Of a DNA stretch of 64,000 bases, positions 4,661 through 16,178 are shown in pieces. The translations under genes were made by a program, and so were the position numbers. The stretch spans positions 124,001-188,000 of the forward strand of contig CACCOB010000001.1 in the NCBI GenBank assembly GCA_902547535.1, written 5' to 3'. The notes beneath the pieces were generated by a model. The model ran no database searches. It had not been told where the DNA came from and saw only the letters and a list, made by a program, of their open reading frames with translations. The number at the start of each line of letters is the position of its first letter. Position 1 is the stretch's first letter. The DNA comes from an uncultured Pelagibacteraceae bacterium. GTDB taxonomy: Bacteria; Pseudomonadota; Alphaproteobacteria; Pelagibacterales; Pelagibacteraceae.

Positions 4661-5725
4661 TTAAAAAAGTGCTTTTATAAAAATCCATTTAGGCATTTTT
4701 AATATTATTGATAAATCTTCAAAAAAATTACTTCTATTAGACAAAAATTTTATAACAGTATTAGATTTATTATTAAACATTCTAAAAAAAATATTTGGCA
4801 TTTTGCTTGGATTATTTTTCAGAACTTTTAAAAAAATATTATCGAGAAATTGATATTTCTTTTTAATTTGAAAAGTTTTCAATTTACTAATGTTTTCGAT
4901 GTTTTCTCTTATATATTTGCATTGTTCTTGAATATTTAGAAAAGTATAACCAGTACTTAACCTTGTCATACCTCCAGCTGTTCCAATATTAATTTTATTT
5001 TTAACCTGGCTGATTACTGGGTAAAAAAGAGGTATTGCACCCACTTCTTTATATGTAATCTTATAATCTTTTAGTTTTAGATTATTCTCAATATATTCTT
5101 TAATTTGCTGATCATAATCTTTTTGGGAGTCGTCATTCATTTCTGATAACCAAGTTGTTTCAACCAATGCTGTTCTTTTTGAATATGGAAGTGTATAAAA
5201 AAAATGAACACTTCCTCTCTGTTCACAATCAAAATCCATTAGATTCATCATTTCTTCATCAAAAAAATTATTTTTTGTCTCTATTTCTACCCCACAAAAA
5301 TGCTGCCATAGACCATTGTTTTGATTATTTAAATTCGGAACGCTATTAAATATTAAAGAGTTATCAAAATTTATATTTTGATCATTTTTGTGAAATGAAA
5401 TATTTTTATTCTCTTTTAATCTATTGTTTATCTTCTCATAAAATAGCCCACTATCAATACTTTGATATGGATAATTATTGCACTCTAGATGTTTAGTCTT
5501 TTGAGGCACATTTATGGAAAAATATTCCCAATTTTTTTTTACACAATCTTCAAAATTATGTGGGAATGTCCTCCAAAAAGACCATGTTTTATCTTTTTTG
5601 TATTCATTTCTCGGTTCAATAATAGCTAATGTTTTATTTTTTAACTTATGATTTGTCTCTAATTCATATGCCAAAGATAATCCTGCACAACCTCCACCAA
5701 TTATTACAAAATCAAAATCTTTCAT
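4661..5725 (-). CDS. crtY: Lycopene beta-cyclase
   Basis: Flavoprotein that cyclises both ends of lycopene to beta-carotene. It begins with a dinucleotide-binding motif (IIGGGCAGLSLAYEL, residues 8-22). The region around residues 230-260 (IPLFYPV, NIGTAGGMTRLSTGY) matches the CrtY family. Length 354 aa is slightly short compared with typical 380-390 aa forms. It overlaps crtB by 14 nt, consistent with co-translation. Confidence 0.92.
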   Translation of the reverse strand: MKDFDFVIIGGGCAGLSLAYELETNHKLKNKTLAIIEPRNEYKKDKTWSFWRTFPHNFEDCVKKNWEYFSINVPQKTKHLECNNYPYQSIDSGLFYEKINNRLKENKNISFHKNDQNINFDNSLIFNSVPNLNNQNNGLWQHFCGVEIETKNNFFDEEMMNLMDFDCEQRGSVHFFYTLPYSKRTALVETTWLSEMNDDSQKDYDQQIKEYIENNLKLKDYKITYKEVGAIPLFYPVISQVKNKINIGTAGGMTRLSTGYTFLNIQEQCKYIRENIENISKLKTFQIKKKYQFLDNIFLKVLKNNPSKMPNIFFRMFNNKSNTVIKFLSNRSNFFEDLSIILKMPKWIFIKALF

Positions 5726-6563
5726 TTAAATTTATTTCTTCACTAATTAATTCGTGTTCTCTATCTCTAAAGTGATTATGTTTTTTAATCAATGATAGTT
5801 TTACTAGGTCAAATATAGATAATATTGTTTGTAATATCTTACCACTTTTAGTAACAAAAATTTTACCTGAATTATTATAATTTTGAATTGTTTGTTTTTT
5901 AATAATATTTCTTCCAATTTGTCTATAAACTCTTCTTGCAACTAAAATTGAAAATCTAAGAGTTAATGGAATATCTTTTATTGATGAAAAGCTACTATCA
6001 TAAAATAAATCTGCAGTAGCCAATGTTTTTTTTATGGTTTCAAAATTATGTTTTATATAAAATCTTTTATTTTTAGAGTCCTCTATCACATCTCTAGAAA
6101 TATTTGTTAGTTGCATAGCTATTCCCAAATCTATAGCCGATTTAAGAGAAGTAGAGCTGTTGACCTTTAAAATTTTTGCCATCATTAATCCAACAGTTCC
6201 TGCTACTCTATATGAGTAAATTAATAATTCCTTTTTTGAATTTAATCTTATTTCATTTTGAATATCAGACTCCACACCATCGAATAAGTCTTCTACAATT
6301 TTTATGGAAATATTATATTCATCCATTAATTTCCACATATTTTTTATTATTGGATTTTGAAATTCTTTATTGATAAAATTATTTTTGAAGTTTAAAAATC
6401 TCCTTAATTTAACACCAATTGTACCTTCATCGTCTGCTATATTGTCTAGAGTTCTACAAAAATCGTATAAATTAGAACATTTCAAATAGGTTTCTTTAGG
6501 AAGAAAAAAACCAGCCCAGTAAAATGATTTTGCGTATATTGATAGAAAACTCTTTTTCTCCAT
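5712..6563 (-). CDS. crtB: Phytoene synthase
   Basis: Condenses two geranylgeranyl diphosphates to phytoene, the first committed carotenoid step. The two aspartate-rich motifs of the squalene/phytoene synthase family are present: DNIADD near residue 40 and SRDVIED near residue 155 (followed by RFYI). Length 283 aa is in the usual range. The start shares one base with the crtI stop. Its substrate would need a GGPP synthase, which is not encoded in this window. Confidence 0.95.
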   Translation of the reverse strand: MEKKSFLSIYAKSFYWAGFFLPKETYLKCSNLYDFCRTLDNIADDEGTIGVKLRRFLNFKNNFINKEFQNPIIKNMWKLMDEYNISIKIVEDLFDGVESDIQNEIRLNSKKELLIYSYRVAGTVGLMMAKILKVNSSTSLKSAIDLGIAMQLTNISRDVIEDSKNKRFYIKHNFETIKKTLATADLFYDSSFSSIKDIPLTLRFSILVARRVYRQIGRNIIKKQTIQNYNNSGKIFVTKSGKILQTILSIFDLVKLSLIKKHNHFRDREHELISEEINLNERF

Positions 6564-8020
6564 TACAAAATTTTGTCTAAGACTTTTGCTGAAGATAGTA
6601 CTCCTGGTACACCTGCTCCAGGATGAGTACCCGCTCCAACAAAATACAAACCATCAAAAATCTCTGATTTATTATGAAATCTAAAATAAGCTGATTGGGT
6701 AAATTTTGGTTGAATAGAAAAACCTGAGCCATATTTTGTATTTAACTCTTTCTCAAAATAATCTGGAGTTAAATAAAAATCCTCAACAATATTTTCGCTT
6801 AGATTGGGCAGTAAACTTTCCTCCATTTTTTTAATAACTAATTTTTTCATTTTATCTCCCTCAATAGACCAATCTATATCAGATTGGTTATTAGGAACTG
6901 GCACCAACACATAAAAACAATCATGATTATCAGGTGCCATAGATTTGTCAGTAGCTGTTGGTCTATGCAAATAGTAACTAATATCGTCATTTAATTTTTT
7001 ATTGTTAAAAATATCATCCAAGTGTTCCTTGTACTTATCTCCAAATTTGATGGTATGATGTTCAACATCGTCGTAAACCTTTTTAGTTCCAAAGTAATAC
7101 ACAAACAAACCCATTGAATATTCCATTCTTCTCATTTTCCAATTAAAAATAGAATTACTACTGTTTGTGTTTGCTAATTTTGAGTAAACTGCAGGTGGAT
7201 CAGCGTTGCAAATAACATTATCTGTCTCTATTTTATCCCCGTTGCTTAGTTCAACTCCAGTTATTTTGTTTTTATCTGATAAGATTTTATTTACTTCGCA
7301 TCCTTTTAATATTTTTATATGTTCTTCATTCATTAGTTTTTCCATCCCATTTATTATTTGACCAGTACCTCCCATTGAATAATGAATTCCCCATTTTTTT
7401 TCTAAATACAAAATTAATCCATATATTGATGTTGTTGTAAAAGGATTACCACCTACCAAAAGTGGATGCATACTAAGTAGCCTTCTTAGTTTTTCATTTT
7501 TGATGTACGAAGAAACTAAACCATAAACAGATTTATAACTCTTTAGACTAAATAAAGAAGGTATTTGTTTAATCATAAAAGAAGGTTTATCAAATGGTAC
7601 GTCTGATAATTCAGTAAATCCTTTATCGAAAATTTTTTTTGTAAAATTAACTAAATTTTTATAACCCTCGACATCTTTTTCATTGATCTTTTTTATTTGA
7701 TCAATCATCTCTTGTTCGCTACCTGAGTAGTTGAATTTGAAACCATCCTCAAAAATAAATTGATACCAGGTTTTGAGAGATTTAATTTCTAAATAATCTT
7801 TTGAGTTTTTATTAAAGAGCTTAAACAATTCATCAATCAAATAGGGTGCCGTTATAACAGTTGGACCACCATCAAATATAAATCCATTTTTTCTAAAAAC
7901 TCTTGCTCTTCCACCTAAATCTTTGTGTTTTTCAATCAAAGTCACATTATGACCCTTAGCTTTTAATCTTAAAGCAGCAGCCATACCTCCAAAACCTGAT
8001 CCAATTACTATAGAATTCAT
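6563..8020 (-). CDS. crtI: Phytoene desaturase
   Basis: FAD-dependent enzyme that desaturates phytoene to lycopene. The N terminus has the FAD-binding motif IGSGFGGMAAALRLKAKG, then the CrtI hallmark GGRARVFRKNGFIFDGGPT. The C terminus has the family signature GLYFVGAGTHPGAGVPGVL (residues 456-474). Length 485 aa is normal. It is the first carotenoid gene, 44 bp after atpF, so the crt genes may be read from their own promoter in that spacer or by read-through from the ATP synthase operon. No clear promoter was found. Confidence 0.95.
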   Translation of the reverse strand: MNSIVIGSGFGGMAAALRLKAKGHNVTLIEKHKDLGGRARVFRKNGFIFDGGPTVITAPYLIDELFKLFNKNSKDYLEIKSLKTWYQFIFEDGFKFNYSGSEQEMIDQIKKINEKDVEGYKNLVNFTKKIFDKGFTELSDVPFDKPSFMIKQIPSLFSLKSYKSVYGLVSSYIKNEKLRRLLSMHPLLVGGNPFTTTSIYGLILYLEKKWGIHYSMGGTGQIINGMEKLMNEEHIKILKGCEVNKILSDKNKITGVELSNGDKIETDNVICNADPPAVYSKLANTNSSNSIFNWKMRRMEYSMGLFVYYFGTKKVYDDVEHHTIKFGDKYKEHLDDIFNNKKLNDDISYYLHRPTATDKSMAPDNHDCFYVLVPVPNNQSDIDWSIEGDKMKKLVIKKMEESLLPNLSENIVEDFYLTPDYFEKELNTKYGSGFSIQPKFTQSAYFRFHNKSEIFDGLYFVGAGTHPGAGVPGVLSSAKVLDKIL

Positions 8021-9389: not shown

Positions 9390-10124
9390 TTAATGGTGTA
9401 AATTTAATGCATCATTCAAATAAATGCATGTTAAAATTGCAAATACATATGCCTGAAGAAAAGCAACTAATATCTCCAAACCTGTAAGTGCAACTGAAAA
9501 ACTTAGTGGAAGCCACCCACCAACAATTCCTAAGCTAATAACAAAACCACCAAATACCTTCATCATTGTATGACCAGCCATCATGTTTGCAAAAAGTCTT
9601 ACTGATAAACTAATCGGTCTACTTAAATATGAGATAATCTCAATAACAACTATTAATGGAAGTAAAACCATTGGAACTCCACTAGGAACAAACAACTTCA
9701 AATATCCTAATCCATGTTTCATAAATCCAATAATTGTAACCCCAACGAAAATAAATGCTGCAAGCATAAATGTAACTATTATATGGCTTGTGACTGTAAA
9801 TGCGTAAGGTATCATTCCAAACATGTTACAAAATAGAACAAACATAAATAGTGAGAAAATAAATGAAAAGTAAGGTTTTGCTTTTGATCCTGCTGTATCA
9901 CTAATCATTTTGGCCACAAAGGAATAACTTAGTTCTGATAGCAGCTGTAGTTTATCAGGTATTAGAGTTTTTTTCTTCGCTCCTAAATTAAAAATTATCA
10001 AAATAGCTAAAGAACTAATGACCATAAATAAACTTGCATTAGTGAAAGAGATATCAACTGAGCCTAATTTAATTTCTGGACCAATTCTATAAACATTGAA
10101 TTGATACATTGGATTTGATGCCAT
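9390..10124 (-). CDS. atpB: ATP synthase Fo subunit a
   Basis: Stator channel subunit that passes protons to the c-ring. The 244-aa protein has several membrane helices and keeps the essential arginine, Arg176, in SVRLFANMMAGH, and the C-terminal helix around LQAYVFAILTCIYL. It follows atpI by 9 nt and precedes atpE, the usual alphaproteobacterial order. Confidence 0.96.
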   Translation of the reverse strand: MASNPMYQFNVYRIGPEIKLGSVDISFTNASLFMVISSLAILIIFNLGAKKKTLIPDKLQLLSELSYSFVAKMISDTAGSKAKPYFSFIFSLFMFVLFCNMFGMIPYAFTVTSHIIVTFMLAAFIFVGVTIIGFMKHGLGYLKLFVPSGVPMVLLPLIVVIEIISYLSRPISLSVRLFANMMAGHTMMKVFGGFVISLGIVGGWLPLSFSVALTGLEILVAFLQAYVFAILTCIYLNDALNLHH

Positions 10125-10133
10125 TATATTCTC

Positions 10134-10412
10134 TTATTTATTTTGCATTTTTTTTGCTGATTTAATTACATTCATAATCCCTGCAATTACTCCTACAAAA
10201 AAAAATATTAAAATTAACCAAGGCTTAGTACCAAACCAATTGTCTAAAATAAACCCAATAATTGTCCCAACAGCTACTGCTGCAACTAATTCAGTGCTCA
10301 TCTTAAAAGCGTGGCCCATTCCTGAAGTCTTAGGCTCTTTATTTTCTAAATATTTGGACTTTGCCCTATTTTTTGCACTTTTAAGGCGAGTTTTAAAATC
10401 TTCCTCTTCCAT
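10134..10412 (-). CDS. atpI: AtpZ/AtpI-family assembly protein
   Basis: Small membrane protein thought to help c-ring assembly or ion supply to Fo. The 92 residues hold a charged N-terminal region and two membrane helices (about residues 40-58 and 65-82, the latter PWLILIFFFVGVIAGIMN). It stands first in the Fo operon, 4 nt downstream of smc, so the ATP synthase genes may be transcribed through from smc. Confidence 0.85.
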   Translation of the reverse strand: MEEEDFKTRLKSAKNRAKSKYLENKEPKTSGMGHAFKMSTELVAAVAVGTIIGFILDNWFGTKPWLILIFFFVGVIAGIMNVIKSAKKMQNK

Positions 10413-10416
10413 TAGT

Positions 10417-12990
10417 CTAAGCTACCATGCTCTCAGCTTTTTGTAGATCAACAGCAACTAGTTGACTTATCCCTTTCTCTGGCATTGTAACCCCATATAA
10501 TCTATCCATTTTTGACATGGTTAATGCGTGGTGGGTTACTATAATGAATCTAGTGGAAGTAATTTTTGTTAATTCGTTTAGAAGATTGCAAAATCTAGTA
10601 ACGTTTGCATCATCAAGCGGAGCATCAACTTCATCTAATACACAGATTGGTGAAGGATTAGTTAAAAACACAGCAAATATTAGAGATAATGCTGTTAAAG
10701 CCTGCTCACCTCCTGAAAGTAGAGTTATAGATTGAAGTCTTTTTCCAGGAGGACTTACTAGCATTTCTAAACCAGCATCTAAGGGATCATCTGAGTCTAC
10801 TAATTCTAATTTAGCGCTACCCCCATTAAATAACTTTGTATAAACTTCATTAAACTTTCTATTTACTCTTTCAAAAGCATCTAAAAGCCTTTCCCGACCT
10901 TTTTGGTTTAGTTCTGTGATACTTTCTTTAAGTTTTAATATTGCTGTAACAAGATCCTGCCTGTCTTGTTCCATTTTTTTTATTTCAGTTTTATATTTTT
11001 CAGTCTCATCGTCAGCTCTTAAATTAACAGAACCAAGCTTTTCTCTTTCTCTTTTTTTTTCATCTAGTAGCTCCTCTTGAGTAACTAAATCTGGAAATTC
11101 ATCACTTTTTTCAAGATTTGAATAATAAAGTATTTTACTTTCTTCTAAATTTAACTCTGTCATTACCCTTTCCAAAAGATCATTTCTTCTTTTATTTAAA
11201 CCTTCAATGGTAGCTCCAGAGCTTGCTTTTTTTTCTCTAATTTCAATCGAACTTTCTTTTGTATTATTTAGTTCGACTCTTATTTCAGCAATACTATTAT
11301 CTATTTTTTCAACTAAAACTTCATTTTCATTTTTTTCATTTTCTGAAATTCTTAAATTTTCAGAAATCTTTCCTTTTTTTTCTGCTTGAGATTGAGGTTG
11401 TATTTCTAGCAAATTTAATTTTTCCTCTAACTTATTTTTTCTAGTGTTTAATTCGTTAACCATTTTTTCAGAATTGGTTAATAAATTTTGCCAACTTTCA
11501 AATTCCTGATCAATAATATTTATCCTCTCTTTTCTTTTTACGGATTCTCTTTTTATGTTTTGATTTTTACTATAAGTTTCTGCGTACTCATCTTGCAATT
11601 TCTTTATTTGATCACTTTTAGAAGTTAAAGTTAAAATAGTATTATCACTTTCAAAATCTTTAACTTTCATAGTTAAATAAGATAAATTTATCATGCACTC
11701 ATCTAAAATTTTTAATGTCTGGTGATTTCTATTTTCAGAGATTAATTTTTTAACTTCTTCAATTTGGTTTTTTATATTATTGATAATTTCATTATTTTTT
11801 TGTAAAGACTCTTTACTAAAGCTCTCAAGCAATACATCCATTCTATCTTGTTCATTTTTTAATTTTGATTTAGAGTTTTCTAAGTCTTGATTTGATAACT
11901 TTTCAGTCTCATAGTACTTTGAGTCTGTTTCAATTAAAGTGTTTCTTTCCTCTTTAAGTCTTTTTTCATTTGAATTAGCGTCAATTACGATACTTTTTTC
12001 TCTATCTATATCTTCGTCTATAACTTTAATGGAATTTTTTATTGTATCTATTTCCTCGTTTATCCTAGTACTTTCCTCATCTAAAGCTTTAAGCTCAAGA
12101 TTTAATCTTTGTATCTTAGACAAGTTTTCAATATTTTTCTGTCTAATTGGTTCTACTCTTTCAAGTTCGTTTTTAATTTTAGTTTCTAACTCATTTATTT
12201 GTTTATTAAATACCTCTACTTTAGTGTCTGCTTCAGTATTTACTTCATTTTCTAAACTAATTTCTTTATCAATTTCTATAAGTCTTAAATAATATAGACC
12301 CGCCTCTACTTTTTTTATTTCTTCAGAAATTAATTTATATTTTGCTGCTTCTTCAGCTTGTTTTTCTAAACTTGCCAATTGTTTTTCTTGCTGTCGTCTA
12401 AGTTCATCTGCTCTTTTTAGATTATTTTCTGCTGCTCCTAATCTGATTTCAGCCTCATGTCTTCTTACATGAAGTCCTGCTATTCCAGCAGCTTCTTCAA
12501 GTATTGCTCTTCTGTCAGATGGTTTTGCAGTAACTAATGCTCCTATTCTTCCTTGACTTATTAATGACGGTGAATGGGCTCCAGTGGATAGATCTGCAAA
12601 AAACATTTGAGCATCTTTTGCTCTAACTTCTTTATTGTTTATATAAAACTTTGAACCTTTATCTTTTTCAATTTTTCTTCGAATTTCTATTTCATCTAAA
12701 TCATTATATTGATGTGGACCATCTTCATTTTCATTATTTAAACTTAAAACTACTTCAGCAATATTTTTTGAAGGTTTATTTGATGTGCCTGAAAATATCA
12801 CATCCTCCATTCCAGAACCTCTCATACTTTTGGCTGAAGTCTCTCCCATACACCATCTAATAGACTCAACTATATTTGACTTACCACAACCGTTAGGACC
12901 AACAATTCCAGTGAGACCTTTTTCAATTAAAAAATTAGTTTTCTCTGCAAAAGACTTAAAGCCATTTAATTGGATTTTTTTAAACTCCAT
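10417..12990 (-). CDS. smc: Chromosome-segregation SMC ATPase, short form without hinge
   Basis: ABC-type ATPase of bacterial condensin, organising the chromosome. Both halves of the head are intact: Walker A GPNGCGKS (31-38), the Q-loop region near residue 147 (SQGRIG), signature LLSGGEQ (757-763) and Walker B with PICVLDEVDAP (781-791). Residues about 180-700 are charged coiled coil. There is no glycine between 232 and 539, and nothing like the globular, glycine-rich hinge that normally sits mid-protein; total length is 857 aa against about 1150 in other Alphaproteobacteria. No CxxC zinc hook replaces it. The frame is uninterrupted, so this is a natural short form, not a pseudogene. The dsbA-like gene lies 8 nt upstream. 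Confidence 0.93.
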   Translation of the reverse strand: MEFKKIQLNGFKSFAEKTNFLIEKGLTGIVGPNGCGKSNIVESIRWCMGETSAKSMRGSGMEDVIFSGTSNKPSKNIAEVVLSLNNENEDGPHQYNDLDEIEIRRKIEKDKGSKFYINNKEVRAKDAQMFFADLSTGAHSPSLISQGRIGALVTAKPSDRRAILEEAAGIAGLHVRRHEAEIRLGAAENNLKRADELRRQQEKQLASLEKQAEEAAKYKLISEEIKKVEAGLYYLRLIEIDKEISLENEVNTEADTKVEVFNKQINELETKIKNELERVEPIRQKNIENLSKIQRLNLELKALDEESTRINEEIDTIKNSIKVIDEDIDREKSIVIDANSNEKRLKEERNTLIETDSKYYETEKLSNQDLENSKSKLKNEQDRMDVLLESFSKESLQKNNEIINNIKNQIEEVKKLISENRNHQTLKILDECMINLSYLTMKVKDFESDNTILTLTSKSDQIKKLQDEYAETYSKNQNIKRESVKRKERINIIDQEFESWQNLLTNSEKMVNELNTRKNKLEEKLNLLEIQPQSQAEKKGKISENLRISENEKNENEVLVEKIDNSIAEIRVELNNTKESSIEIREKKASSGATIEGLNKRRNDLLERVMTELNLEESKILYYSNLEKSDEFPDLVTQEELLDEKKREREKLGSVNLRADDETEKYKTEIKKMEQDRQDLVTAILKLKESITELNQKGRERLLDAFERVNRKFNEVYTKLFNGGSAKLELVDSDDPLDAGLEMLVSPPGKRLQSITLLSGGEQALTALSLIFAVFLTNPSPICVLDEVDAPLDDANVTRFCNLLNELTKITSTRFIIVTHHALTMSKMDRLYGVTMPEKGISQLVAVDLQKAESMVA

Positions 12991-12998
12991 TCAATGAC

Positions 12999-13580
12999 TT
13001 ATATCAGTTTTTCAATATATTTTTTTAATTTTTTATAGTTTTTAGGATTTTCGAACTTTTCACCGTTGATTATAAGTGTTGGAGTTGCCTCTATTTTATA
13101 GTTTTTTGCTCCATCGATTCGGTCTTCTAAAATAAAATCTTCGATTTTTGAGTCAGTGATACATTTATCAAAATCTAATTCAAAACCTGATTCTTGAATT
13201 ACTCTTTTTAAATTTTTATTGAGATCCTCAATTGTGCTTCCTCTAACCCAGCTACTTTGGTTGTTGTATAAGTGATGAAGTATTTCTGATTTTCCATCAT
13301 TCCTACAATGAGCTATTTTTGCTGCATTAAACGCAGCTATATCTAGAGGAAAATTTCTATATTCAATCGAAATTAAATTTTTATCTATAAAATCAGTTTT
13401 TAGCTTTGGATAAATATCTCTATGAAAATCTCCACAATGACTGCATGTCAAAGACTCGAAAACCATAAGTTTTACTTTTGTATTAACATTGCCGTCTTTA
13501 ATATGTTTGATTTCTGCTGTTGCGTTAAAACTAATAAAAAATAATGATATTATTAACGTTTGTATTAATATTTTTTTCAT
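12999..13580 (-). CDS. DsbA-like periplasmic thiol oxidoreductase
   Basis: Thioredoxin-fold protein likely acting on disulfides in the periplasm. A Sec signal peptide covers about residues 1-22 (ending FNATA). The active site is Cys46-Ser-His-Cys49 in ESLTCSHCGDFHRD, and the cis-proline loop is EATPTLIING. It overlaps the DUF721 gene by 4 nt. The order DUF721, DsbA-like, smc is a recurrent alphaproteobacterial arrangement. Length 193 aa is usual for this subgroup. Confidence 0.9.
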   Translation of the reverse strand: MKKILIQTLIISLFFISFNATAEIKHIKDGNVNTKVKLMVFESLTCSHCGDFHRDIYPKLKTDFIDKNLISIEYRNFPLDIAAFNAAKIAHCRNDGKSEILHHLYNNQSSWVRGSTIEDLNKNLKRVIQESGFELDFDKCITDSKIEDFILEDRIDGAKNYKIEATPTLIINGEKFENPKNYKKLKKYIEKLI

Positions 13581-14056
13581 CTTGTTTTAAATATTTTATT
13601 TAACTCTAATAAAGATTGCTTAATTTTATCATTCTTAATATTGATAATCTTATTTATATTTTTGCTATTTGTCGCATTTTTAATTTTATTATCTCTGGTT
13701 TTTTTGAATTCTCCCTCAAAGGTCTTTAACCTTATATTATCGACCACATTATAACCAAAAAAAATATTTATTTTTTTTAAAATTTCTTTCTTAGAATATT
13801 CTAGGTCAACTTCATTTCCTCTTTTAACCATTATACTTAAATAGCTTCCATTTAATTTTGAGTTTTTATAAGATATTGGATAGCAAACATTAAATAATTC
13901 TTTTCCAACAAGAAATTTCCAATTATCTAAAGTATTTGAGTAAATTTGTCCTTTTTTATTCAATATTCTTTTTGCTTCTTGGGGCAAAGTATCTTTAAAG
14001 GATCTTAGTCCTTGAACAGATTTATTTCTCTGCTTAGTATTATATTTAAAATTCAT
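13577..14056 (-). CDS. DUF721 (DciA-like) protein
   Basis: Members of the DUF721 family include DciA, a loader or helper of the DnaB replicative helicase. The visible core is NWKFLVGKELFNVCYPISYKN... followed by LNGSYLSIMVKRG, matching the family's W-x3-VG-x3 pattern; the remainder is a lysine/asparagine-rich tail. I place the start at the ATG at 14056 (159 aa) rather than the TTG at 14068, because it abuts the mutY ATG exactly. The helicase-loading role is known for DciA and inferred here. Confidence 0.72.
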   Translation of the reverse strand: MNFKYNTKQRNKSVQGLRSFKDTLPQEAKRILNKKGQIYSNTLDNWKFLVGKELFNVCYPISYKNSKLNGSYLSIMVKRGNEVDLEYSKKEILKKINIFFGYNVVDNIRLKTFEGEFKKTRDNKIKNATNSKNINKIINIKNDKIKQSLLELNKIFKTR

Positions 14057-15043
14057 ATGACAAATCAAAACATACCAAATAAAATTTTAAAATGGTACGA
14101 CAATAATAAAAGAAATCTTCCTTGGCGAAAAAAAGTCTCTAAAAATCAAAAAGAATATTTTACTTTAGTAAGTGAATTTATGTTGCAACAAACTCAAGTA
14201 AAAACAGTAATCCCATATTTTGAAAATTTTACCTCGAAAATCCCAGATTTAATAAGTTTATCAAAAGTTAGAGATGCTAAATTGATGAAATGTTGGGAGG
14301 GATTAGGATATTATTCAAGAGCAAAAAATCTAAAAAAAACAGCAAAAATAATTATAAATGAATTTAAGGGAAAGCTTCCAAATAATGAGGAAGGTTTAAA
14401 ATCGCTACCTGGGATAGGAGATTATACTGCAAAAGCTATTATGGCAATTGCATTCAACTATAAAATAATCCCATTAGATGGAAATGTTGAAAGAGTTTTG
14501 AAAAGAGTATTTTATTTAAAAAAAGAAAAAGAAATTTCTAAAGAGAATTTACATAAAAAAAAATCTTTTTTTGGGGAAACAAACAGAGCTAGTGATTATG
14601 CTCAAGCCATAATGGAAATAGGCGCATTAATTTGTAAACCAACAAAACCAATTTGTAATCAATGTCCAATTTCTAGAAATTGTAAATCTTTTAAAAAAAA
14701 CGATTTTCAGATTGTGAAAGTAAATAAATTTAATAAACAAATATTTTTTGAGGCAAATATTTTTCAAAATAAAAAGAATAATTATTACCTTTTAAAAAAC
14801 AGAAAATTTAATTTTTTAAAGGATATGGCTATATTTCCAATGAATGAGATACCTAAAATAAAATTTAGAAAACACGTGGGAAAAAGGATCAATATAAAAA
14901 TGTCTAATATGGACATGAGAATTGCAATTACGATGAAAAATAATTTACCAGAAAAGAAAAATGGTTTTTTTGTAGATGTAAAAGATTTAACTAATTTGAC
15001 TTTACCTTCATTTACAAAGAAAATAATTAATACTATCAGATAA
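14057..15043 (+). CDS. mutY: Adenine DNA glycosylase
   Basis: Removes adenine mispaired with 8-oxoguanine. The helix-hairpin-helix LPGIGDYTAKAI and the catalytic aspartate in PLDGNVERVLKR are present, followed by the [4Fe-4S] cluster motif C-x6-C-x2-C-x5-C (in LICKPTKPICNQCPISRNC). A NUDIX-like C-terminal region follows. I choose the ATG at 14057 (328 aa); a longer in-frame start at 14012 would run into the divergent DUF721 gene. The FAD monooxygenase starts 4 nt downstream. Confidence 0.94.
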   Translation: MTNQNIPNKILKWYDNNKRNLPWRKKVSKNQKEYFTLVSEFMLQQTQVKTVIPYFENFTSKIPDLISLSKVRDAKLMKCWEGLGYYSRAKNLKKTAKIIINEFKGKLPNNEEGLKSLPGIGDYTAKAIMAIAFNYKIIPLDGNVERVLKRVFYLKKEKEISKENLHKKKSFFGETNRASDYAQAIMEIGALICKPTKPICNQCPISRNCKSFKKNDFQIVKVNKFNKQIFFEANIFQNKKNNYYLLKNRKFNFLKDMAIFPMNEIPKIKFRKHVGKRINIKMSNMDMRIAITMKNNLPEKKNGFFVDVKDLTNLTLPSFTKKIINTIR

Positions 15044-15047
15044 ATTA

Positions 15048-16178
15048 ATGAAAAAAATTGCAATAATTGGCGGAGGAATATCGGGGTTATATTTTGCTAA
15101 TATTTTAAATAGTGAAAAAAATTTTGAATACAAAATATTTGAAAAAAAAAATAATTTTAATTTCCAAGATGGTTATGGAATTCAACTATCAGTTAATAGT
15201 ATTAAGTTATTGAATAACATAGGATTTAAAAATCTACCTGCATCTCAAGTTAGCTTTCCGTCAAAAGTTAATTTCATACAAGCAAATAACTCTAAAAAAA
15301 TTTGCGATATAGACCTTACACAATTTAATGATCAATTAAATCGATACACAACACTAAAAAGATCAACATTATTAGAATTTTTATTTAAGAATGTGCCTGA
15401 AAATCAGATTAAATTTAATTCAAATATAACAAAAATAGAAAAGGCGAATGGCTTTAGAATTGCTTTGGATGAAAATATACATGAGGAATTTGATTATTTG
15501 ATAATTGCTGATGGTATTTTTTCAAAAACGAAGTCATTGATATTGAATGATATTACAAATCCAAAATATAACTTTAATGTCGCTCTTAGAGGTAAGTTAA
15601 GGGGTGATTATGGTAGTGATATTTCTATTTATATGGCATCAAACAGTCATTATGTGATCTATCCGATAAACCAAAATAATGAATATAATTTTGTAGCTAT
15701 CATAAAAAAAAAATTATCATCAGATGAGCTAAGAAATTATGATTTATTTAAATCTAATGAGTTTTTAAGCTCTTTAAGATCAAGTTTACAAAAAACATCA
15801 CAAATAAGCTTTGGACATTTAAGTGAATTAAAATCTTTTCCTGTTTACGTAAGCAGCAAATTTCCGAGTTTAAATGAACAAAATATATTTTTATCTGGTG
15901 ATGCTCTGTTCACTTTCTCACCATCATTTGCTCAAGGTGCGTCCCAAAGTATTGAAACCGCAAACGATATATTAAAAAGTATTTTAAATGGTTCAAATGA
16001 ATACTATCAAAAGAGAATTGAAAATATTTCCTCAATAAATGACAAATCAAAATTTAATCATTTTTCATTCCATTTATCAAATCCTCTAAGTGTCTTTATT
16101 AGAAATAACATTTTGAAGTTTCTCTCAAAAAATAAAACATTTCTTGAAAATTATTTGGGTAAAATTTATAGAGCTTAA
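15048..16178 (+). CDS. FAD-dependent monooxygenase
   Basis: Class A flavoprotein hydroxylase (UbiH/salicylate hydroxylase superfamily). It has the N-terminal FAD motif IIGGGISGLYFANIL, the DG-like segment LIIADGIFSKTKS (about 150-162), and the second FAD motif FLSGDALFTFSPSFAQGASQ (GD of the family). The substrate cannot be read from sequence. It follows mutY by 4 nt and its stop codon interlocks with that of ccrM in TTAA. Ubiquinone hydroxylation is possible but not shown. Confidence 0.85.
   Translation: MKKIAIIGGGISGLYFANILNSEKNFEYKIFEKKNNFNFQDGYGIQLSVNSIKLLNNIGFKNLPASQVSFPSKVNFIQANNSKKICDIDLTQFNDQLNRYTTLKRSTLLEFLFKNVPENQIKFNSNITKIEKANGFRIALDENIHEEFDYLIIADGIFSKTKSLILNDITNPKYNFNVALRGKLRGDYGSDISIYMASNSHYVIYPINQNNEYNFVAIIKKKLSSDELRNYDLFKSNEFLSSLRSSLQKTSQISFGHLSELKSFPVYVSSKFPSLNEQNIFLSGDALFTFSPSFAQGASQSIETANDILKSILNGSNEYYQKRIENISSINDKSKFNHFSFHLSNPLSVFIRNNILKFLSKNKTFLENYLGKIYRA

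What the first reader, a model, noticed from the sequence alone, without database searches (positions are those of the whole stretch)
10417..12990. SMC protein with intact ATPase heads but no hinge
The 857-aa SMC has complete Walker A, signature and Walker B motifs, but residues 232-539 contain no glycine and are continuous charged coiled coil. The dimerisation hinge of normal SMC (a globular, glycine-containing domain mid-protein) is absent, and there is no CxxC hook as in Rad50. The frame is open and sits at the usual alphaproteobacterial smc locus. If real, dimerisation must use another device, perhaps the short non-coil stretch around residues 421-460, and the condensin would have arms much shorter than usual.
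Basis: partly seen in the sequence, partly recalled or inferred. Interest (0 to 1): 0.7.

Follow-up and report, generated by a model that had tools for sequence, protein, structure and literature searches.

The report
Hinge-less chromosome condensin of SAR11 bacteria
SAR11 ocean bacteria carry a chromosome-folding SMC protein that has lost the hinge domain normally joining its two halves, yet keep its ATPase heads and usually its partner proteins, so this motor apparently works without the ring closure thought to define the family.

Summary
Confirmed. The 857-aa Smc (window 10417-12990, minus strand) has intact ATPase motifs and no hinge. Pfam SMC_hinge finds none, but that model misses many alphaproteobacterial hinges, so I built a class-specific profile: 147-182 bits on its 19 training Smc, 80-96 on two short Smc outside the order, at most 3.2 on the 92 full-length Pelagibacterales Smc examined; 0 of 147 order genomes ring (119 of 190 in the class sample). 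It is no assembly deletion: 71 genus members have just two lengths (46 at 857 aa, 25 at 798), the locus is conserved and selection is purifying. AlphaFold2 joins the arms by two short helices (857 type) or a three-residue turn (798 type). ScpA and ScpB are found in 40 of 46 order genomes tested, not in this 88%-complete genome. MarineAlpha6-like genomes (5 of 6 searched) are hinge-less too; whether independently is open. A HIMB59-like lineage has short arms but keeps a hinge. Most likely this is a working Smc-ScpAB held by heads, kleisin and arm contacts, with an open tip; that mechanism is inferred. Ten searches of open-licence papers showed no earlier report. New variant of a known kind.

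The parts
10417..12990 (-). smc gene, 857 aa, hinge-less SMC ATPase
   Evidence: TIGR02168 SMC_prok_B 667 bits over the cut-off of 567
12475..12990 (-). N-terminal half of the ATPase head (residues 1-172)
   Evidence: matches solved Smc heads 5xg3 and 3zgx; model helices and strands
12874..12900 (-). Walker A GPNGCGKSN (residues 31-39)
   Evidence: invariant in the 58 rows of A3
11821..12474 (-). N-terminal arm, helical (residues 173-390)
   Evidence: AF2 helices 173-250 and 258-390
11647..11820 (-). tip where the hinge should be: two short helices (394-418, 422-446) between short turns (residues 391-448)
   Evidence: hinge profile at most 3.2 bits on the 92 order members examined; least conserved stretch
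11695..11697 (-). codon of Cys432, the only invariant residue of 382-461 in the 857-aa type
   Evidence: 25 of 25 rows; 46 of 46 sequences of 857 aa, 27 TGT and 19 TGC
10921..11646 (-). C-terminal arm (residues 449-690), helix interrupted at about 613-658
10420..10920 (-). C-terminal half of the ATPase head (residues 691-857)
10702..10719 (-). ABC signature LSGGEQ (residues 758-763)
   Evidence: invariant
10630..10638 (-). Walker B LDE (residues 785-787)
   Evidence: invariant
12999..13580 (-). DsbA-like thioredoxin gene, conserved upstream neighbour of smc
   Evidence: PF13462; found in 81 of 87 smc loci
13577..14068 (-). dciA (DUF721), neighbour
   Evidence: PF05258; detected in 26 of 87 loci
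14012..15043 (+). mutY-like glycosylase, neighbour
   Evidence: PF00730; 61 of 87 loci
9390..10412 (-). atpB and atpI, downstream neighbours
   Evidence: PF00119 and PF09527; 53 and 52 of 87 loci

Best explanation
This is the Smc of the bacterial condensin Smc-ScpAB, reduced in the order Pelagibacterales by removal of the hinge together with the outer third of both arms (about 116 residues of coil per arm). Shown: heads with every catalytic motif, helical arms in the models, no detectable hinge in this protein or elsewhere in the order's genomes, ScpA and ScpB kept in most of the order members tested. Inferred: two Smc are still brought together in three ways: ATP-dependent head engagement, the kleisin ScpA bridging one neck and the other head's cap, and side-by-side arm contacts as in the Smc rod. 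The tips stay free or touch only weakly. The ATPase cycle would then open and close a two-armed clamp on DNA, without a closed Smc-Smc-hinge ring, which implies that permanent tip dimerisation is dispensable for the chromosome job.
For: Absence of the hinge: Pfam none; alphaproteobacterial hinge profile 147-182 bits in the 19 Smc it was built from, 87-170 bits in 59 long Smc of named records (profile with two more rows), at most 3.2 bits in the 92 full-length Pelagibacterales Smc examined; 0 of 147 order genomes ring with PF06470 or with the alphaproteobacterial profile A1, against 119 of 190 class genomes with A1. There is no room for one: arms joined by a three-residue turn in the 798-aa type and by two 25-residue helices here. 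Function kept: SMC_prok_B over cut-off, invariant motifs, head fold Z 34.5 to 5xns and 33.8 to 5xg3, median NG86 ratios 0.013-0.091 by region (dS saturated), only two lengths among 71 genus members, same neighbours as hinge-bearing smc. ScpA and ScpB over cut-off in 40 of 46 order genomes tested. Mechanism by precedent: Diebold-Durand et al. [quoted passage not shown] subtilis Smc, citing Minnen et al. 2016, which I could not read; Burmann et al. 2017 (PMC5344682, section 12) find the fold of the dimerisation domain irrelevant for segregation in B. subtilis; their natural arm-length modes of 341 and 238 aa (section 8) fit a one-step shortening.
Against: No experiment; dimer state, DNA entrapment and ATPase activity are unknown. 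scpA and scpB were not found in the window's own genome (88% complete) nor in five other order members of 91-97% completeness, and both genes are missing together. [quoted passage not shown] The B. subtilis chimera still had a dimerisation module, a zinc hook. C432, invariant in the 857-aa type, hints at some local role of the tip. AF2 models are monomers with mean pLDDT about 75 and pTM 0.40-0.46.
Confidence: 0.57

Rival explanations
1. The tip has become a new, small dimerisation device: hairpin meets hairpin as a helical bundle, perhaps pinned in genus g1 by one cysteine per protomer (C432) as a one-cysteine counterpart of the Rad50 hook.
For: Two-helix insert at the tip with block pLDDT about 80; C432 is the only invariant residue of 382-461 and is kept through two codons in 46 of 46; no cysteine in the arms of the 857-aa type, and one sequence has a second tip cysteine at 426. 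In the 798-aa type 15 of 25 have the matching cysteine and three more have one nearby (411 twice, 380 once).
Against: 10 of 25 of the 798-aa type have F, L, I or S at the matching position, as a buried coil residue would; of the 21 order members examined outside genus g1 only L092 has a cysteine in residues 332-560; the tip is the most variable stretch and is a bare turn in the 798-aa type.
Confidence: 0.25
2. The protein no longer serves as a condensin but as a head-only DNA clamp or repair factor, RecN- or Rad50-like.
For: Loss of ring closure; scpA and scpB not found in 6 of 46 order genomes, this one included.
Against: ScpA and ScpB kept in 40 of 46; SMC_prok_B over its cut-off and Rad50 models far under theirs; landmark-to-landmark length constant in each type.
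Confidence: 0.12
3. A hinge is there but too diverged to see, or is supplied by another gene.
For: The Pfam hinge model misses many alphaproteobacterial hinges (58 of 190 class genomes ring, 119 of 190 with A1), so profiles can fail.
Against: The class profile finds the divergent hinges of two short Smc outside the order at 80-96 bits without having been trained on them, and nothing in the order; a hinge of about 120 residues cannot fit into 58 or 3 residues; no order genome of 147 rings with A1 at E 0.1 (positive control).
Confidence: 0.04
4. Assembly deletion or decaying gene.
For: The window's genome is a 10-contig assembly, 88% complete; one order genome (G108) has a TAG inside its smc match.
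Confidence: 0.02

Closest known systems
Bacterial Smc of Smc-ScpAB (TIGR02168 SMC_prok_B), e.g. of B. subtilis and of other alphaproteobacteria
   Same: Same locus as in other alphaproteobacteria, heads, coiled-coil arms, kleisin ScpA and ScpB in most order members tested
   Different: No hinge; arms shorter by about 116 residues each
Engineered B. subtilis Smc with the Rad50 zinc hook in place of the hinge (PMC5344682)
   Same: Smc working without the hinge fold; short arms tolerated at certain lengths
   Different: Engineered, and still has a dimerisation module; SAR11 has none that I can see
Rad50/SbcC
   Same: ABC-type head, long arms ending in a short tip instead of a hinge
   Different: No CxxC hook, far below the Rad50 cut-offs; kleisin partners in the order (Mre11 not searched)
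C. elegans SMCL-1 (PMC5373644)
   Same: Natural SMC-like protein without a hinge
   Different: SMCL-1 also lacks the coil and residues needed for ATP hydrolysis and binds and modulates other condensins; here coil and ATPase motifs are intact and this is the one Smc match in its genome

Membership tests
Bacterial condensin Smc (TIGR02168) | Profile score over the curated cut-off | tested here: met
   667.2 bits against 567.35
Bacterial condensin Smc (TIGR02168) | Walker A, signature, Walker B in a two-part head | tested here: met
   invariant columns; head fold match
Bacterial condensin Smc (TIGR02168) | SMC hinge domain between the arms | tested here: not met
   It is therefore filed as a hinge-less variant orthologous to Smc, not as a canonical Smc
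Bacterial condensin Smc (TIGR02168) | Long antiparallel coiled-coil arms | tested here: met
   long helical arms in two AF2 monomer models; pairing of the two helices was not measured
Bacterial condensin Smc (TIGR02168) | ScpA and ScpB in the same genome | tested here: inconclusive
   own genome none (88% complete); 40 of 46 order genomes tested for each
Bacterial condensin Smc (TIGR02168) | Homodimer, ATPase, DNA entrapment or loop extrusion | not testable with these tools
   needs protein or cells
Rad50/SbcC | CxxC zinc hook at the tip | tested here: not met
   single Cys432, no CxxC
Rad50/SbcC | Score over the Rad50 cut-offs | tested here: not met
   best 46.8 bits against 1087
Rad50/SbcC | Mre11/SbcD partner | not tested
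   not searched

The most novel reading that the evidence does not exclude
A whole order of very abundant marine bacteria runs its Smc-ScpAB condensin with no tip dimerisation at all, so chromosome organisation by an SMC-kleisin complex does not need a closed SMC ring; the hinge was dropped once or twice in streamlined alphaproteobacteria.
Probability: 0.45. Interest if true: 0.9.

Novelty: new variant of a known kind. Interest (0 to 1): 0.74.

Why it matters
The hinge is treated as one of the two defining domains of SMC proteins, and ring closure at the hinge underlies entrapment and many loop-extrusion models (established knowledge, recalled). A natural, conserved, apparently functional Smc without it gives a direct test of what the hinge is for. 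The HIMB59-like lineage, with short arms but with a hinge, is a ready-made comparison that separates arm shortening from hinge loss. The hinge-less state is also a rare genomic character for placing MarineAlpha6 and HIMB59 relative to SAR11.

Tried and rejected
Pfam PF06470 alone was not enough: the Caulobacter control does not ring with it and only 58 of 190 class genomes do, so I did not rest the case on it. A detached hinge gene was looked for and not found (0 of 147; positive control).

The apex cysteine as a universal metal hook was considered and dropped as the main reading: it fails in 10 of 25 of the 798-aa type and in the other genera.

Two independent hinge losses: the head tree (59 sequences that I picked from those at hand) separates Pelagibacterales, MarineAlpha6-like and the short hinge-bearing lineage and needs two changes of hinge state, but holding Pelagibacterales and MarineAlpha6-like rows together is not rejected (p-AU 0.38), and the MarineAlpha6-like rows have odd composition and a long branch, so one loss is not excluded. 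Holding Pelagibacterales with the short hinge-bearing lineage is weakly rejected (p-AU 0.029), as is holding all three together (p-AU 0.033). The groups were set by the form of Smc, but I chose these tests after seeing the tree. Hinge-bearing L126 (983 aa, G326) was left out of the tree and of the length measure; L300 and L294 could not be measured.

Literature: ten searches of open-licence papers; no title or abstract start listed, and no passage that I opened, describes a hinge-less SAR11 Smc. Most listed papers I saw only as listings, one opened text is held only in part (PMC7203096), and subscription papers and preprints were not searched. The two 'condensin' hits that I opened were the word 'condensing'.

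Full report
What is there. The gene at 10417-12990 is on the minus strand and encodes 857 aa. It scores 667 bits on NCBIfam SMC_prok_B, over the cut-off of 567, and its two ends match solved Smc heads at E about 1e-97. Pfam finds the SMC_N and AAA domains and no SMC_hinge even at E 10. The locus is the usual one: DsbA-like, dciA and mutY upstream, atpI and atpB downstream. Of 87 loci compared, 81 have a match to the DsbA-like gene, 61 to mutY, 53 to atpB, 52 to atpI and 26 to dciA; several hinge-bearing alphaproteobacteria (for example L240, L242, L244) have them all, others lack the atp genes there (some loci end before these genes).

Is the hinge really missing? The Pfam hinge model is a poor tool in this class: it rings in 58 of 190 class genomes and not in the Caulobacter control. 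I therefore took 19 hinge-bearing alphaproteobacterial Smc (18 of 1099-1174 aa and one of 983 aa as trimmed) and made a profile of their roughly 123-residue hinge. It scores 147-182 bits on these, its own members, and 96 and 80 bits on two short Smc outside the order on which it was not trained. On Pelagibacterales Smc it gives at most 3.2 bits: 92 full-length proteins, namely 46 of 857 aa, 25 of 798 aa, 12 from other genera of the family and 9 of the second family. Searched over whole genomes, the hinge alignment A1 rings in 119 of 190 class genomes and 0 of 147 order genomes, so no separate gene supplies a recognisable hinge. By my comparison of the lists, 9 of the 128 class genomes with an Smc match lack a hinge match: two Pelagibacterales, two MarineAlpha6-like (G169, G300), and five whose listed Smc frames are only 274-541 aa (G162, G190, G210, G282, G332). 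The other 62 of 190 had no Smc match at E 1e-10, in a search that scored at most five candidates per genome.

How general it is. P0001 finds a match in 137 of 147 order genomes, one of them weak (G117); the 10 misses include four genomes of at least 90% completeness and were not followed. Single-contig genomes show the same form. The 71 genus members examined in full, trimmed to the shared start, have only two lengths, 46 of 857 and 25 of 798 aa. Names come: thirteen short, hinge-less Smc (L227-L237, L243, L295) lie in records called Pelagibacteraceae, all at most 1.5 bits. Contig lengths of G112:C1 (236446) and G014:C3 (156655) equal those of two such records, AG-892-A22 and AG-896-A02, which ties both families of the order to that name. 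Of 79 Smc read from the 80 named loci, 59 are over 1100 aa and all 59 have a hinge; three are pieces of 479-595 aa.

Two side lineages. First, G306 and G176 (with the named records AG-899-L06 and AG-893-E21) have short Smc, 864-882 aa, that keep a hinge. G176 is a single contig of 1410127 bases; I recall this as the genome of HIMB59, which no call confirms. Second, a group that I call MarineAlpha6-like: 5 of the 6 genomes of that small order gave a full match, and these are 803-817 aa without a hinge. Two are 100% identical to named records, one titled MarineAlpha6_Bin4 and the other Pelagibacteraceae bacterium SP38, so the naming of this group is not settled. On a tree of heads (59 sequences, picked by me) the three groups are separate and the hinge changes state twice, but one shared clade of Pelagibacterales and MarineAlpha6-like rows is not rejected (p-AU 0.38). 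Joining Pelagibacterales with the short hinge-bearing group is weakly rejected (p-AU 0.029), and so is joining all three (p-AU 0.033).

Anatomy. AF2 with 58 order members (A3, mean pLDDT 75.6, pTM 0.46) gives helices 173-250 and 258-390, then 394-418 and 422-446, then 449-612; no strand lies between the arms, and block pLDDT over 391-450 is 64-82. For the 798-aa type (A4, 41 rows, pLDDT 74.6, pTM 0.40) one helix runs 171-389, a turn 390-392, and the next helix 393-470, with block pLDDT 81-82 at the turn. So the tip is a two-helix insert in one type and a bare hairpin in the other. From the EEAA to the SGGE landmark I measured 590 (46 of 46), 531 (25 of 25), 544-616 (12), 594-595 (9), 534-548 for the MarineAlpha6-like group (5), 598-606 for the short hinge-bearing group (3) and a median of 884 in 75 of 77 long Smc. 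Taking off the hinge or tip, the coil falls from about 761 to about 530 residues, some 116 per arm. Burmann et al. 2017 (section 8) report natural prokaryotic arm modes at 238 and 341 aa, so this is about one natural step. Their survey defined arms by aligning head and hinge, so hinge-less proteins would not have entered it (methods passage; my inference).

Selection and the tip. Among 161 pairs of the 857-aa type (85-97% identical; 123-160 of them usable by region), median NG86 ratios are 0.027 and 0.013 in the two head parts, 0.047 and 0.066 in the arms and 0.091 in the tip. dS is over 1, so these are rough, but nothing points to decay. Residues 381-460 are the least conserved 80-residue stretch of the protein; within 382-461 only C432 is invariant in 25 of 25 rows, and in 46 of 46 sequences of this type it is a cysteine, with two codons in use. 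In the 798-aa type 15 of 25 have it at the matching position, the rest F, L, I or S. That fits a packed residue as well as a functional thiol.

Partners. ScpA is over the cut-off in 49 of 56 genomes tested and ScpB in 49 of 56; within the order 40 of 46 for each, missing together in the same six: G000 (this genome, 88% complete), G012, G016, G040, G090 and G094. In the listed pairs that I compared, scpA and scpB lie side by side, so one assembly gap would remove both; I did not check this. Within the window's genus, 21 of 22 other genomes tested have ScpA. I tested 46 of the 147 order genomes.

How it most likely works. With heads, arms and kleisin kept and the hinge gone, the simplest reading is a two-armed complex held at the head end. 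Head engagement by ATP and kleisin bridging follow from established Smc-ScpAB knowledge. Arm contacts are taken from Diebold-Durand et al. [quoted passage not shown] subtilis Smc. Burmann et al. 2017 replaced the hinge by a zinc hook and saw normal growth on rich medium (section 12), and Tatebe et al. 2020 (passages) made the reverse swap; both still had a dimerising tip. That a condensin works with a free tip is my inference and the point to test. The rival, a small new tip device, cannot be excluded, above all for the 857-aa type.

Novelty. The ten literature searches showed no description of this; the nearest natural case seen is C. elegans SMCL-1, which lacks hinge, coil and hydrolysis residues (abstract and passages). 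It is a new variant of a known kind: the heads and locus say Smc, the defining hinge is tested and absent.

Noticed in passing
L108, L109, L225, L226: A HIMB59-like lineage outside the order has equally short Smc arms but keeps a divergent hinge: a natural control that separates arm shortening from hinge loss.
   Followed up: partly
L127, L218-L222, L238, L239: MarineAlpha6-like genomes (5 of 6 searched gave a match) also carry a hinge-less Smc of 803-817 aa; not clear whether the loss is shared with Pelagibacterales.
   Followed up: partly
class sample of 190 genomes: Pfam PF06470 (SMC_hinge) rings in about half as many alphaproteobacterial genomes as a class-specific profile does (58 against 119); the Caulobacter control does not ring with it either.
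   Followed up: yes
window 10417-12990 and the 798-aa relatives: Within one genus Smc exists in two exact lengths, 857 and 798 aa, differing by the two-helix tip insert.
   Followed up: partly
L126 (G326): A hinge-bearing Smc of intermediate length, 983 aa; not examined further.
   Followed up: no
G108:C2:149616-150857: The smc frame of this genome has one internal TAG; not examined.
   Followed up: no
window 13577-14068 (-) and 14012-15043 (+): dciA and mutY are divergent and overlap by 57 bases as called, both from TTG; the true starts may lie further in.
   Followed up: no
window 4661-8020 (-): A lycopene cyclase (PF05834) and an amine-oxidase-type protein, which may be a carotenoid desaturase, sit next to the ATP synthase genes.
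   Followed up: no
window 15048-16178 (+): A 376-aa protein with an N-terminal GGGISG dinucleotide-binding-like motif has no Pfam match at 1e-5.
   Followed up: no
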